Assembly: GCF_026107415.2 (NCBI RefSeq)
Contig: NZ_JAPCHX010000002.1
Coordinates: forward strand, 434,001 to 498,000
Source of the DNA: Microbacterium sp. MPKO10
GTDB taxonomy: Bacteria; Actinomycetota; Actinomycetes; Actinomycetales; Microbacteriaceae
Direction of reading: 5' to 3'
Length of the DNA stretch: 64,000 nucleotides
A program made the translations under genes and the position numbers. Positions 9,954 to 63,577 of this stretch are shown piece by piece. The first letter of the stretch is position 1. Each line of letters begins with the position of its first letter. The notes below the pieces were generated by a model. It worked only from the letters and a program-made list of their open reading frames with translations, was not told the origin of the DNA and did not search any database.

Positions 9954-9979
9954 AAAGTGAGATGCCACGATCGGCCCCT
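9954..9979 (+). repeat. IS-like terminal repeat, copy 3 of an element also at 57932 and 60131
   Basis: These 26 bases, centred on GTGAGATGCCACGATCGGCC, match 25 of 26 positions of 60128-60153 and are closely related to 57932-57953. In the other two places the sequence forms one arm of a long inverted repeat. Here only one arm is present, followed 57 bases later by an ORF with a transposase-like helix-turn-helix. It therefore looks like the left end of a decayed insertion sequence. Confidence 0.6.
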
Positions 9980-56963: not shown

Positions 56964-57677
56964 ATGAGTGACAACGAATCAGACGAACGCCCTCGCCCGG
57001 CATACGGCGAGTATGCGAATGAGAAGCGGAAGCGTCCGCAGTTCGGGGAGTATGCGACTCCCGAGCAGCAGCGCGCCGCGATCCGCGTGCCGGCGAGCGA
57101 TGATAACGAGTCAGTTCCGATCGAGAAGCACGACGACAGCGTCCGCACGGATGACCGGACGCGAAACGAGGGCACACGCCCGGACCACCGTGCCGGCAAC
57201 GCGGAGCAGGAACCCGACCAGCGTCCCCATCAGTGGCCGAATCACCAGAAGAACCAGCAGGCGGCACCCGCAGACACCGATCCGGTCGCCGAAGCCCGAC
57301 GCCGGACTGATCGGTTCTCGACGTACATCCTGCTCGGCGTCGGTCTCTTCAGCGTGCTGTCGACGGCGCCGTCACTGCTGCAGCTGCCGAAGATGCTCAC
57401 TCAGGCGTACGGACAGTTCGGCATGGGGGAGTACACGAACACCGAGCTCGCCACGACGATCGGGTGGGTCATCCTGATCGTCTACGCCGGTCTCTGGGTC
57501 GTCGCACTTCTGCTGTCGCTGCGGCGGCTCGCCGCGCGCAAGACCACGTGGTGGGTCCCGTTCGTCATCGGCGTCGTCGCGAACCTGGTCTATCTCATTC
57601 TGCTGACGGTCGCGATGGTGAACGACCCGGCCTTCATGCAGTACGTGAACGGCATCGCGCAGGGAACAGCAGGCTGA
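56964..57677 (+). CDS. DUF6264 membrane protein
   Basis: 237 residues. The N-terminal half is hydrophilic and holds a repeated motif, RPRPAYGEYANEK and KRPQFGEYATPEQQ. After a Gln/His/Asn-rich linker come three transmembrane helices (TYILLGVGLFSVLSTAPSLL, IGWVILIVYAGLWVVALLLS, WVPFVIGVVANLVYLILLTV). The YGEYA motif plus three helices fit the Microbacteriaceae family DUF6264. It starts 6 bases after the ispH stop, so it is probably cotranscribed. Function unknown. Confidence 0.85.
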   Translation: MSDNESDERPRPAYGEYANEKRKRPQFGEYATPEQQRAAIRVPASDDNESVPIEKHDDSVRTDDRTRNEGTRPDHRAGNAEQEPDQRPHQWPNHQKNQQAAPADTDPVAEARRRTDRFSTYILLGVGLFSVLSTAPSLLQLPKMLTQAYGQFGMGEYTNTELATTIGWVILIVYAGLWVVALLLSLRRLAARKTTWWVPFVIGVVANLVYLILLTVAMVNDPAFMQYVNGIAQGTAG

Positions 57678-57697: not shown

Positions 57698-58017
57698 CAG
57701 TTGACCTGATGAGGTGTCGGGGCTGGCCGCCACGCGAACCGCAGACGGAGTCAGACCTGCCTTCTGCATCGCGTCTGTGTGGGTGATCGTGCGGCACGGA
57801 CGCAGTGAGGCGGTAATTCACAGCCATTCTCTGCAACTCACGTGCCAGCGCGCGGATGCGGGGTGCGGGGACACCCGGTCTGACGAGAGGGCGGAATGCT
57901 GTCGCGGCATGCTCCGTTGTCGCTCCGCAACGTGAGAAGACACGATCGGCCCCTGTCGAGGTGCGGCAGAAGGGCCGATCGTGGAGTCTCACCTGTGGTG
58001 AGAGATAGAGCCCCAGG
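57698..58017. repeat. Direct repeat copy 1 (R1), ending in a long hairpin
   Basis: About 320 bases that align with 59900-60207. The stretch from roughly 57767 to 58000 differs at only a handful of positions. It ends in a long inverted repeat (57932-57992): GTGAGA plus CACGATCGGCCC pair with GGGCCGATCGTG plus TCTCAC around a 19-base loop. The copy lies between the convergent DUF6264 and alpha/beta hydrolase genes. No convincing gene is inside it. From 58018 to 58178 I see nothing recognisable. Confidence 0.85.
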
Positions 58018-58178
58018 CGCCCAGGCCCACACGCATACCGAGGGCAATGCACTAACGACGAGCAGGTGGTCAATCTCGTGTACGTCGCCAATTCGTCTGA
58101 ACCGCCTTTCGCGACGAATGCGGACCGTATCTGCGTCGAGGGCAGGGGACTCCCCGACACTCGCGAGCTTGGTCAGCG

Positions 58179-58964
58179 TCATGCGGCCGAGAGACTGTTC
58201 GCGAACGACTCGATCACCGAGACCAGTTCGGTCGGAGCCTCCAGGGGGATGAGATGGCCGGTACGCGGAATAACAATCAGCTCGGAGTGCGCAAGGTAGG
58301 GCAGCAGATTGCGGCGCAGCACGTCCGTCGGCTCCACCTGGTCGTACTCGCCAGTGACGACCAGGGCAGGAACCGTCGCTTGCGAGGTCTCCGCGCTGAT
58401 GTCCTGGGCGATGCCGTGGAGCGGCCATTCTGCCGCGGCAGCCGCGGCACTGCTTCGGGAATCTTGCACAATCTGCGTCTTCACAGTGTCAGCGAGGGAC
58501 GTGGCGGTGAGGACGTTGTCGCGTGCCCATGCAGCGGATTCGTCGCTGTCGTAAGCGTGTGAAAGTCCTTCCTGATGTTCGGGCGTGATCTCATCGGCCG
58601 GCCTGGCCGGCGCTGAGCCGACGAGTACGATGCCGCGCAGGCCATTCGGATGCGCCGACGCGACGAGCTGGGCTACCTTGCCACCCATGGAATGTCCCAC
58701 CAGCATGTAGTCGGCGATCTCGGCATCCGCGATGACATTCAACGTGTCGTTCGTGAGCTGCTGCAGCGAATAGGGACCGGGGAGAGAGCTCGACCTGCCC
58801 CATCCTCGGGAGTCAATGGTGAGGATGTCGCGTCCGCCGAGGCCGGTGATGACGGATGCCCAGGTACGAGCCGAGCCACCCCAGTAGTGCACGAAGACCA
58901 GTGTTGGTCCGGTTCCGTGCACATGGTCGTACACCGGTAAGTCGTTTGTCATTGATGCGTTCAT
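58179..58964 (-). CDS. Alpha/beta hydrolase
   Basis: 261 residues. VFVHYWGGSARTWASVI gives the oxyanion region, DYMLVGHSMGGKVAQLVASA holds the nucleophile Ser, VTGEYDQVEP supplies the acid, and IVIPRTGHLIPLEAP the catalytic His. The family covers esterases, dehalogenases and C-C hydrolases; substrate unknown. It is divergent from an AraC-type regulator across a 92-base gap, and the pair sits between direct repeats R1 and R2. Regulation by the neighbour is likely. Confidence 0.92.
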   Translation of the reverse strand: MNASMTNDLPVYDHVHGTGPTLVFVHYWGGSARTWASVITGLGGRDILTIDSRGWGRSSSLPGPYSLQQLTNDTLNVIADAEIADYMLVGHSMGGKVAQLVASAHPNGLRGIVLVGSAPARPADEITPEHQEGLSHAYDSDESAAWARDNVLTATSLADTVKTQIVQDSRSSAAAAAAEWPLHGIAQDISAETSQATVPALVVTGEYDQVEPTDVLRRNLLPYLAHSELIVIPRTGHLIPLEAPTELVSVIESFANSLSAA

Positions 58965-59056
58965 CGCTGGCTTCCCATCGATTGTTTTTTATGGTCTTGG
59001 TGCTTTACAGTCAACAGCGATATTTGCGACGTGGCAGTAGGTCTTGTGGACAAGGA

Positions 59057-59911
59057 ATGGTGAAAACTGGACCAGTGACAACGATTCAACAGATGACCTA
59101 CCATCCGGTTGACGGATCGTCCGCTCCCCTAGAGATGATGACGTTCGATGCGCTCCGGGCGGCGAACGACGGCGGCACCCAGAGAGCTGACTTTGTCGTC
59201 GTTGCTGTCGTTATGGCGGGGCATGGCCTGGTCGACATCGATTTCGCCACCCACGCCCTTTCGGCGCGATCTGTCGTGTGGATCGCGCCCGGCGCAGTTC
59301 ACCGCTGGTCCGATATCGATGATCTGCGCGGTGAGCTTGTGCTGTTCACACCAACTGCACCAGTCTCATTCGCGACTCGAGAGCGTGCAGTGACGTTCGA
59401 CGCCGACGCCGCGTGGACGGCAAGTGGCGAGTCGTGGCCATTCATCATCGCGGGTCTTGAGCACCTCCGTGTGGAAGCTTCGTCGCAAGCAGGGGGAGCC
59501 GCGGCGGAAATCCCGACGATCCTGCTGTCCGCACTGATCGCCAGGCTCGGACCGTCGGCTCCGTCGAGCAGCCCACGTGACTCTGCGTATCAACTGTTCC
59601 GCGCCTCGGTCGAGGAGAACTTTCGCGCGCATCATGACGTCGGCTTCTATGCGCACAGGCTCGGGTATGCAGCGCGGACGCTGTCGCGCGCATGCGTGCG
59701 GGCCACAGGGCGTACAGCGAAGGCGGTGATCACGGAGCGTGTCATACTCGAGGCGAAACGCCTGCTCGCGCACGATCGGCTGACAGCAGCGCAATGCGCC
59801 GCTGCACTTGGATTCGCCGATGCGTCGGTCTTCTCCGCTTTCTTCCACCGCGAGTGCGGAATCAGACCGGGTCGCTGGCAGGCCCGGACATTCGCGAGTC
59901 AGCTGACGTGA
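59057..59911 (+). CDS. AraC-family transcriptional regulator
   Basis: 284 residues. The N-terminal cupin-like sensor (FVVVAVVMAGHGLVDIDFAT, WIAPGAVHRWSDIDDL) is followed by the two helix-turn-helices of AraC proteins (VGFYAHRLGYAARTLSRACV; ECGIRPGRWQARTF near the end, with AAQCAAALGFADASVFSAFF between). The start is uncertain: ATG 59057 directly abuts AAGGA, while GTG 59060 and GTG 59078 also fit. It probably controls the divergent hydrolase. Its last codons form the left edge of repeat R2. Confidence 0.9.
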   Translation: MVKTGPVTTIQQMTYHPVDGSSAPLEMMTFDALRAANDGGTQRADFVVVAVVMAGHGLVDIDFATHALSARSVVWIAPGAVHRWSDIDDLRGELVLFTPTAPVSFATRERAVTFDADAAWTASGESWPFIIAGLEHLRVEASSQAGGAAAEIPTILLSALIARLGPSAPSSSPRDSAYQLFRASVEENFRAHHDVGFYAHRLGYAARTLSRACVRATGRTAKAVITERVILEAKRLLAHDRLTAAQCAAALGFADASVFSAFFHRECGIRPGRWQARTFASQLT

Positions 59912-60207
59912 GGTGCAGAAACTGGCCGCTGTGGGAACCGCCGACGGATTCAGAACTACCGTCTGTAACGCGTCTGTGTGGGTGATCGTGCGGCACGGAC
60001 GCGATGAGGCGGTAATTCACAGCCATTCCCTGCAACTCACGTGCCAGCGCGCGGATGCGGGGTGCGGAGACACCCGGTCTGACGAGAGGGCGGAATGCTG
60101 TCGCGGCATGCTCCGTTGTCGTTCCGGAAAGTGAGATGACACGATCGGCCCCTGTCGAGGTGCGGCAGAAGGGCCGATCGTGGAGTCTCAGCTGTGGGTG
60201 AGGGATG
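59900..60207. repeat. Direct repeat copy 2 (R2), ending in a long hairpin
   Basis: Second copy of the sequence at 57698-58017, with the same hairpin at 60131-60191. The left edge overlaps the stop of the AraC gene (CAGCTGACGTGA against CAGTTGACCTGATGA in R1). It lies between the convergent AraC and fba genes. R1 and R2 have the same orientation. Confidence 0.85.
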
Positions 60208-60250: not shown

Positions 60251-60291
60251 ACGGCGGATGCTGTCGGGCGAGGCCCGACAGCATCCGCCGT
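60251..60291 (-). terminator. Intrinsic terminator of fba
   Basis: ACGGCGGATGCTGTCGGGC (60251-60269) and its exact reverse complement (60273-60291) form a perfect 19-base-pair stem closed by a 3-base loop. On the minus strand it is followed by a run of T (complement of 60245-60250), a classical rho-independent signal 18 bases after the fba stop. The stem contains the octamer GGATGCTG. Confidence 0.93.
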
Positions 60292-61341: not shown

Positions 61342-61426
61342 GACTTCTCCTAGCGGGGCGTGACTTTGGTTGCCCCCACAGCTTACTGATGCCGCGCAGC
61401 ACCTCGCACCCCGTGACGCGCTGCGG

Positions 61427-61432
61427 GATGAT
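61427..61432 (+). promoter_or_regulatory. -10 box of the first, leaderless glpX gene
   Basis: GATGAT ends 6 bases before ATG 61439; no ribosome site is seen. Confidence 0.4.
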
Positions 61433-61438
61433 GGGCAG

Positions 61439-62383
61439 ATGAACTTCGAGGCGAGCAACCGGGCGCTGCACGACCATTTCCTCCGGATTACAGAGCAGGC
61501 TGCCGTCGCAGCATCCGCGTATGTCGGCTCGGGCGACAAGCTCGCTGTCGACGACGCGGCCGTGCAGGCGATGCGCCTGGCTTTTGAAGAGGTCCCGGTG
61601 AGCGCGCGGATCGTCGTGGGCGAGGGCGAGAAGGACCGGGCACCGATGCTGTACACGGGGGAAGAGCTGGGAGCCGGTGGACCGGAGGTCGATGTCGCCG
61701 TTGACCCCGTCGACGGCACGCGGCTCGCCGCGCAGAACCTCCCGGGCTCCGTCGCTGTCATGACGCTTGCGCCGCGCGGGAGCCTGTTCGACCCCGGGCG
61801 CGTCTTCTACATGGAGAAGCTCGTCACCACTGCGGCAGGAGCGACACTTTCGCTCGAACGGTCGCTGACCGAGAACCTGATGATCCTCGCCTCTGAGCTC
61901 GGCCGACCGGTCAGCAAGCTCCGGGTGGCGGTGCAGGATCGCCCGCGAAACAGGCGATATCTCACCGAGATTGCGGATGCTGGTGCCGAGCCTGTGCCGT
62001 TCGCTGACGGAGACGTCGTGGAGTCGCTGCGCGCGGCCCGTGGCGACGGCATCGACATGCTCATTGGTATCGGAGGAGCGCCCGAGGGGGTGCTGACCTC
62101 CGTCCCCGTCGCGGCGCTCGGCGGCCATATGCAGGGGCGCCTGGCTCCGCAGACCGACGGGGAGAAGGCCCAGGCGGATGCTGTCGGCCAACGCTATGGC
62201 GACATTCTGCGCCTCGGCGACCTCGCGGCCGAGCCGGGGGTCTTCGTGCTGTCGGCGGTCACTGCCGCTGCTGGACTCGACGGTCCGACGCGCGAGCAGG
62301 GCGAGGTCGCCGTGCACAGCCTGGTGATCGACGCGAGCGGCGAGCCGCGGCGCGTCGCCTGGCGGCATCCGGTCACGCGCTGA
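61439..62383 (+). CDS. Class II fructose-1,6-bisphosphatase-like protein, first of two
   Basis: 314 residues of the GlpX family: AASAYVGSGDKLAVDDAAVQ, VVGEGEKDRAPMLYTGEELG, the metal site VDVAVDPVDGTRLAAQNLPG, VFYMEKLVTTAAG and IGIGGAPEGVLTSVPVAALG. It keeps the DPxDGT and GEGEKD residues, but the DPVDGT segment is followed by RLAAQNLPGS, where the second copy has SLTAAGRQNA. It is shorter than the second copy (314 against 331). It may have a different phosphatase substrate. ATG 61439 fits a leaderless start. Confidence 0.9.
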   Translation: MNFEASNRALHDHFLRITEQAAVAASAYVGSGDKLAVDDAAVQAMRLAFEEVPVSARIVVGEGEKDRAPMLYTGEELGAGGPEVDVAVDPVDGTRLAAQNLPGSVAVMTLAPRGSLFDPGRVFYMEKLVTTAAGATLSLERSLTENLMILASELGRPVSKLRVAVQDRPRNRRYLTEIADAGAEPVPFADGDVVESLRAARGDGIDMLIGIGGAPEGVLTSVPVAALGGHMQGRLAPQTDGEKAQADAVGQRYGDILRLGDLAAEPGVFVLSAVTAAAGLDGPTREQGEVAVHSLVIDASGEPRRVAWRHPVTR

Positions 62384-62581
62384 CTCTAGAACGTCGAATG
62401 ATTCTGGCGCCACTGAAGGATTCTGAATACGCACGGGATTCGGGGCATACGTGACCTGCGCGACACCGTGCACACCCGTGCACAGTTGTTCATGTGGTCA
62501 TGCCAGAACAGTGACGCGGTTAGGCTGATAGTGGCGTGGACGTCCGGCCAATTCGTTATCACCGCCAAAACAGAGGACATC

Positions 62582-63577
62582 GTGAGCACAACTGACTCCG
62601 CATCCCACTTCCGTCACCCTGACCGCAACCTCGCACTTGAACTGGTGCGCGCCACCGAGGCGGCAGCGATCCGCGCCGTCCCCTTCATCGGTCGCGGTGA
62701 CAAGAATGCCGCCGATAAAGCAGCCGTCGATGCGATGCGCGCATTTCTGGGCACCGTCAACTTCGACGGCCGCGTCGTGATCGGCGAGGGGGAGAAAGAC
62801 GAAGCCCCGATGCTGTTCAACGGAGAGGCCGTGGGCAACGGTTCGGGCCCGCACTGCGACATGGCCGTCGACCCGATCGACGGCACGAGCCTCACGGCCG
62901 CAGGCCGTCAGAACGCATTGTCCGTCATCGCCGTCTCTGATCGCGGAACGATGCTCGACGCGTCGAGTGTGTTCTACATGGACAAGATCGTCACGGGCGA
63001 AGAGGGGATCGGCGTCGTCGATATCCGCAAACCCATTGGCGAGAACCTGCGCGCACTCGCGACAGCCAAGGGCAAGAAGGTCGAAGACCTCACGGTCGCT
63101 GTTCTGGATCGTCCTCGCCACGAGCAGCTGATCAACGACATCCGCGCTGCTGGGGCAGGCACGCGACTTATGCTCGACGGTGACGTCGCGGGCGGAATCA
63201 ACGCCGCGCTGTACGGAACACGCATCGATATGTGCGTCGGCACCGGCGGCAGCCCCGAGGGCATCGTCACGGCCTGTGCGCTCAAAGGCCTGAACGGGTT
63301 CATCCAGGGGCGGATGGCGCCGAAAGACGACGACGAGCGTCAGAAGGGCATCGACGCGGGTCTCAAGATGGATTACGTCTACGAGGCAGACGAGCTTGTC
63401 AACAGCGACAACACATTCTTCGTGGCGACGGGCGTCACCGACGGTGGTCTCGTGCAGGGCGTGCGTCGCCTCGGCCCGATCATTCGCACGTCAAGTGTTG
63501 TGTTGCGGTCGAAGTCGGGCACGATTCGGCGAATCTCAGCCGATCACCTGGCGAAGAAGTGGCTGGACGAAGAGTAG
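62582..63577 (+). CDS. glpX: Class II fructose-1,6-bisphosphatase
   Basis: Gluconeogenic phosphatase releasing fructose 6-phosphate. 331 residues with full GlpX motifs: VPFIGRGDKNAADKAAVDAM, VVIGEGEKDEAPMLFNGEAV, DMAVDPIDGTSLTAAGRQNA, SVFYMDKIVTGEEG, MCVGTGGSPEGIVTACALKG and FFVATGVTDGGLVQGVRR. GTG 62582 follows AGAGGA. The 198-base gap after the first glpX has its own space for a promoter. This copy is the likelier true FBPase because it matches the family more closely. Confidence 0.96.
   Translation: MSTTDSASHFRHPDRNLALELVRATEAAAIRAVPFIGRGDKNAADKAAVDAMRAFLGTVNFDGRVVIGEGEKDEAPMLFNGEAVGNGSGPHCDMAVDPIDGTSLTAAGRQNALSVIAVSDRGTMLDASSVFYMDKIVTGEEGIGVVDIRKPIGENLRALATAKGKKVEDLTVAVLDRPRHEQLINDIRAAGAGTRLMLDGDVAGGINAALYGTRIDMCVGTGGSPEGIVTACALKGLNGFIQGRMAPKDDDERQKGIDAGLKMDYVYEADELVNSDNTFFVATGVTDGGLVQGVRRLGPIIRTSSVVLRSKSGTIRRISADHLAKKWLDEE

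What the first reader, a model, noticed from the sequence alone, without database searches (positions are those of the whole stretch)
57698..60207. Two-gene module (alpha/beta hydrolase and AraC regulator) bracketed by about 310-bp direct repeats
R1 (57698-58017) and R2 (59900-60207) align over their whole length in the same orientation and flank exactly two divergent genes. Each copy carries the same long hairpin and sits in a convergent gap. The module looks like an insert between DUF6264 and fba that could be lost or amplified by recombination between repeats.
Basis: partly seen in the sequence, partly recalled or inferred. Interest (0 to 1): 0.6.

Follow-up and report, generated by a model that had tools for sequence, protein, structure and literature searches.

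The report
Duplicated hairpin spacer around two genes
A divergent hydrolase/AraC-regulator gene pair sits between two 91%-identical copies of a roughly 300-base non-coding spacer that carries terminator-like hairpins; the pair is a patchily kept gene island, and the repeats look like a duplicated spacer rather than the ends of a mobile element.

Summary
R1 (57710-57998) and R2 (59909-60197) are direct repeats, 91% identical over 289 bp, flanking a divergent alpha/beta-hydrolase and AraC pair between DUF6264 and fba. The module is an optional insert: three same-genus genomes have DUF6264-fba gaps of about 74-184 bp and no module. A fourth, G003, carries orthologues of both genes (78-79%) at the same site inside a larger six-gene island without R, so R is not needed for insertion or maintenance there.

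R occurs twice in this genome and nowhere in about 299 sampled genomes of the family, plasmids or phages. It encodes no conserved protein and matches no Rfam family. R contains a 61-bp hairpin of a low-copy family of this genus (fixed length, GTGAG/CTCAC feet, 22-bp stem with two-sided base-pair changes, often A-/T-flanked), usually downstream of genes and about half the time in convergent gaps. Such a hairpin sits beside fba in G003 and G004, so R2 looks like inherited fba-side spacer and R1 like a copy.

Best reading: a duplicated bidirectional-terminator-type spacer, its inner part homogenised or constrained. R1 x R2 recombination could delete the module, but this was not observed.

The parts
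56964..57677 (+). DUF6264 gene, conserved left neighbour
   Evidence: Pfam DUF6264 E 2.7e-61; neighbour of fba in all five genus genomes
57710..57998 (+). R1, left direct repeat (ungapped core; the gapped repeat spans about 57698-58010)
   Evidence: 91% identical to R2
57710..57840 (+). R1 copy of the long branched stem, 5' arm decayed
   Evidence: fold and comparison with R2
57932..57992 (.). 61-bp hairpin in R1, GTGAG...CTCAC
   Evidence: pattern and fold
58179..58964 (-). alpha/beta hydrolase
   Evidence: Abhydrolase_1 E 5.9e-19; 78% orthologue at the same site in G003
59057..59911 (+). AraC-family regulator
   Evidence: HTH_18 E 6.3e-19; 79% orthologue at the same site in G003
59909..60197 (+). 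R2, right direct repeat, starting at the AraC stop codon
59906..60042 (+). long branched stem in R2; its outer arms match the dispersed GTGAGTTGCAGAAAATGGC arm type
60131..60191 (.). 61-bp hairpin in R2
60251..60291 (-). fba terminator-like hairpin followed by a T-run on the minus strand; conserved in sister species
   Evidence: 19-nt perfect inverted repeat; counterparts in G001, G002, G003 and G004
   Evidence: 93-96% identical in four genus genomes

Best explanation
R1 and R2 are two copies of one non-coding, hairpin-rich spacer at convergent gene ends that most likely acts as a bidirectional transcription-terminator region. The hydrolase/AraC pair is a small, patchily kept island at a variable site between DUF6264 and fba. 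R2 is probably the older copy: it sits where sister species carry a 61-bp GTGAG hairpin beside the fba terminator, and its first bases are the AraC stop codon. R1 is a copy placed between DUF6264 and the hydrolase, probably by segmental duplication or homologous repair during remodelling of the island. The inner about 230 bp stayed nearly identical through gene conversion or constraint while the 5' edge of R1 decayed. Shown: the repeats, the empty sites, the larger R-less island in G003, the hairpin family. Inferred: terminator function, direction of copying, gene conversion. Recombination between R1 and R2 could delete the module as a side effect, but nothing indicates that R is a dedicated mobility signal.
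For: Repeat geometry and uneven divergence. Empty sites in G001, G002, G004 and a larger R-less island in G003. 61-bp hairpin beside the fba terminator in G003 and G004. Genus hairpin family of constant 61 bp, arms covarying, A-/T-rich flanks, mostly downstream of genes. A second duplication of hairpin-bearing spacer in the same genome, 87-bp repeats at 85%, 255 bp apart in one convergent gap. No coding signal in R. No R elsewhere.
Against: Termination was not measured. T-runs are short or absent, and both R hairpins are followed by CTGTGG. The hairpin in R2 lies about 60 bp from the fba terminator, against 7-14 bp in G003 and G004, and its stem sequence differs, so orthology rests on position. 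The direction of copying rests on few bases. No intermediate genome was available.
Confidence: 0.6

Rival explanations
1. Recombination cassette: the module entered by a single crossover between an R in the DUF6264-fba gap and an R on incoming DNA, leaving R on both sides, and it can be lost or amplified by the same route.
For: Direct repeats exactly flank the pair. Empty sites exist. The inner part of R is nearly identical, as ongoing recombination would keep it.
Against: Empty sites carry no R. G003 has the pair at the same site without R. R is found nowhere else. No integrase or relaxase gene lies between the repeats.
Confidence: 0.22
2. R is a mobile palindromic element (MITE- or REP-like compound) that inserted independently on both sides of the module.
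For: Dispersed hairpin arms and a fixed 61-bp length. The GTGAG foot overlaps gene stop codons at several loci.
Against: Whole R has only two copies, both here and in the same orientation. No target-site duplication was evident by eye (not tested systematically). A transposase was not searched for.
Confidence: 0.1
3. R encodes a structured regulatory RNA, kept in two copies to control the flanking genes.
For: Strong folding: z -4.9 for R2 and -3.4 for R1 on the + strand. The centre is much better kept than the left edge.
Against: No Rfam match. No relative of whole R in about 299 genomes. The long stem is decayed in R1. Much of the z-score can come from the terminator-type hairpin.
Confidence: 0.06

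Closest known systems
Bidirectional intrinsic terminators in convergent gene gaps
   Same: Long GC-rich hairpin in convergent gaps; many family members have A-runs before and T-runs after
   Different: Fixed 61-bp size, shared GTGAG/CTCAC feet, short or missing T-runs, duplicated together with about 230 bp of further spacer
REP elements (GTAG/CGTC-tagged palindromes; PMC3733652, abstract)
   Same: Dispersed palindromes between convergent and co-directional genes, predominantly downstream of coding regions
   Different: REPs are 20-40 bp, in high copy and tagged by unpaired GTAG or CGTC; these are 61 bp, low copy, with a paired GTGAG foot
Strain-variable gene islands between conserved neighbours (general knowledge)
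   Same: Present or absent between conserved DUF6264 and fba; the pair is conserved at other loci in other actinobacteria
   Different: Here flanked by duplicated spacer, which the G003 island lacks

Membership tests
Repeat-bounded mobile cassette (composite-transposon- or Campbell-type insert) | Direct repeats at both ends | tested here: met
Repeat-bounded mobile cassette (composite-transposon- or Campbell-type insert) | Empty site retains one repeat copy | tested here: not met
   G001, G002 and G004 lack R; only sister species, not strains, were available
Repeat-bounded mobile cassette (composite-transposon- or Campbell-type insert) | Repeats accompany the same genes at other sites | tested here: not met
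   no R at the G003, G004, G203 or Sphaerisporangium copies
REP element | 20-40 bp palindrome with unpaired GTAG or CGTC tag, high copy number | tested here: not met
   61 bp, paired GTGAG foot, roughly ten copies or fewer per genome by pattern search
REP element | Associated RAYT transposase | not tested
Bidirectional intrinsic terminator | Stable hairpin in a convergent gap | tested here: met
   R1 -42.0 and R2 -43.6 kcal/mol; both gaps convergent
Bidirectional intrinsic terminator | T-run after the hairpin on each strand | tested here: inconclusive
   clear in some family members, weak or absent at R1 and R2

The most novel reading that the evidence does not exclude
The 61-bp GTGAG...CTCAC hairpins are an undescribed family of fixed-geometry palindromes in this actinobacterial genus and perhaps its family. 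Their stems change on both arms between species while length and feet stay fixed, and different stem types occupy corresponding sites in sister species. Spacers bearing them get duplicated, and R1/R2 is one such duplication that now bounds an optional gene module.
Probability: 0.2. Interest if true: 0.5.

Novelty: new member of a known kind. Interest (0 to 1): 0.3.

Why it matters
For the finding as given the value is modest: it is an optional gene pair at a variable site with duplicated spacer on both sides, and a caution against reading every pair of direct repeats as mobile-element ends. The side result, a fixed-length hairpin family whose stems covary between species, could be a tractable case for how convergent-gap terminators or REP-like palindromes evolve and spread in actinobacteria.

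Tried and rejected
R as a decayed gene: two long minus-strand ORFs cover R but have no Pfam match, and codon changes between R1 and R2 are mostly non-synonymous in every frame. R as a known RNA: only weak miRNA-family matches, at the fba terminator and not in R. R as a remnant of the extra genes of the G003 island: blastn of the extended repeats against that locus finds only the AraC tail and the fba terminator. R on plasmids or phages, and its core on viral contigs: none. The third genome match to R (C2:604949) is only a hairpin of the same family in the citrate synthase / penicillin-amidase gap. The G011 match is a 22-bp identity within ORFs and was taken as chance. The single genome-contig scan with AraC returned one relative, in Sphaerisporangium. 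A literature search for such repeats in Microbacterium returned nothing.

Full report
Observation. The direct repeats are real. The genome holds no other copy: a third, weaker match covers little more than a hairpin elsewhere. The repeats enclose an alpha/beta hydrolase (58179-58964, minus) and a divergent AraC-family regulator (59057-59911, plus). R1 lies between DUF6264(+) and hydrolase(-), R2 between AraC(+) and fba(-); both gaps are convergent.

Site comparison. In the four other genomes held for the genus, DUF6264 and fba lie at the same site. G001, G002 and G004 have only about 74, 77 and 184 bp between them, with no module and no R. G003 has the orthologous hydrolase and AraC (78 and 79% identity) at this site, inside a larger island: nitrilase, AraC, hydrolase, AraC, second hydrolase, HxlR regulator. 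Concatenated neighbours and citrate synthase put G003 with G004, apart from G000 and G001. The module is thus either ancestral with several losses or transferred between lineages at the same site; I cannot separate these. The hydrolase/AraC pair is also divergent and adjacent at other loci in G004, G203, G187 and Sphaerisporangium. R is absent from the G004, G203 and Sphaerisporangium copies, from 299 sampled genomes of the family and from plasmids and phages, and its core from viral contigs.

Anatomy of R. Each R ends with a 61-bp hairpin, GTGAG...CTCAC (CTCAG in R2), at 57932-57992 and 60131-60191. R2 also has a long branched stem, 59906-60042, whose outer arms match a dispersed hairpin-arm type GTGAGTTGCAGAAAATGGC. 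In R1 the 5' arm of this stem is decayed. Ungapped, R2 begins at the AraC stop codon. Of 25 differences between R1 and R2, 16 lie in the first 60 bp, so the inner part is homogenised or constrained and the left edge of R1 has drifted. No reading frame shows protein-type conservation. No Rfam family matches R.

The hairpin family. A search of the genus for GTGAGNTG...CANCTCAC palindromes of 48-72 bp returned 12 elements of exactly 61 bp in G000, G001, G003 and G004, plus three of other lengths in G000 that look like chance; reversed-pattern controls gave 0-2 per genome. The CACGATCGGCCC stem type was found only in G000, the TTGCAGAAAATGGC type mainly in G001 and G000. Aligned without gaps, 22 elements pair at 88% of the 22 stem positions, against a mean of 73% (maximum 81% in 2000 trials) when arms are swapped between elements; 15 positions show changes on both sides. 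Part of the set was collected by requiring palindromic ends, so only the inner pairs are unbiased, and related elements are not independent. By a rough gene caller, 15 of 28 lie in convergent gaps, 10 between co-directional genes and 3 in apparently divergent gaps (with AraC and HxlR placed by hand). Several are preceded by A-runs and followed by T-runs. This fits bidirectional terminators without proving it. At the fba side, G003 and G004 have such a 61-bp hairpin next to the fba terminator, with other stem sequences, so R2's hairpin is probably the inherited one. In the citrate synthase / penicillin-amidase gap G000, G001 and G004 carry hairpins of different stem types; G003 shows none and G002 has a different hairpin.

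A parallel duplication. At C2:189.2-189.5 kb of the same genome two hairpins lie in one convergent gap within 87-bp direct repeats, 85% identical, 255 bp apart. Duplication of hairpin-bearing spacer has thus occurred at least twice in this genome.

Interpretation. The insert is real as an optional gene pair, but R is not shown to be its boundary in any mobile sense: the empty sites lack R, and the G003 island has none. The simplest account is a terminator-type spacer copied to the other side of the pair while the island was being remodelled. Deletion of the pair by R1 x R2 recombination is mechanically possible and testable by PCR or more strains. The function of the hydrolase cannot be named beyond its fold; its best curated models (PcaD-like lactonases) score far below their cut-offs.

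Limits. One background paper on REP elements was consulted, by its abstract (PMC3733652).

Noticed in passing
G000 C2:189220-189535 (L106 1483-1824): Two 61-bp hairpins in one convergent gap, within 87-bp direct repeats at 85% identity, 255 bp apart: a second duplicated hairpin spacer in this genome.
   Followed up: partly
L003 1501-1560, L004 1463-1523, window 59909-59911, L097 1501-1504: The GTGAG foot of the hairpin, or of the long stem in R2, overlaps the TGA stop codon of the adjacent gene at several loci.
   Followed up: partly
window 9957-9977 (G000 C2:443957): A lone GTGAGATGCCACGATCGGCCC arm without its partner arm.
   Followed up: no
L014 1461-1521 (G000 C1:643 kb): A chimeric hairpin: the left arm is of the CACGAAATGCCCC type, the right arm of the GATCGGCCCC type.
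   Followed up: no
window 61370-62383 and 62468-63577: Two adjacent paralogous genes (38% identical, labelled glpX-like here without a family search) next to fba, kept in all five genus genomes.
   Followed up: no
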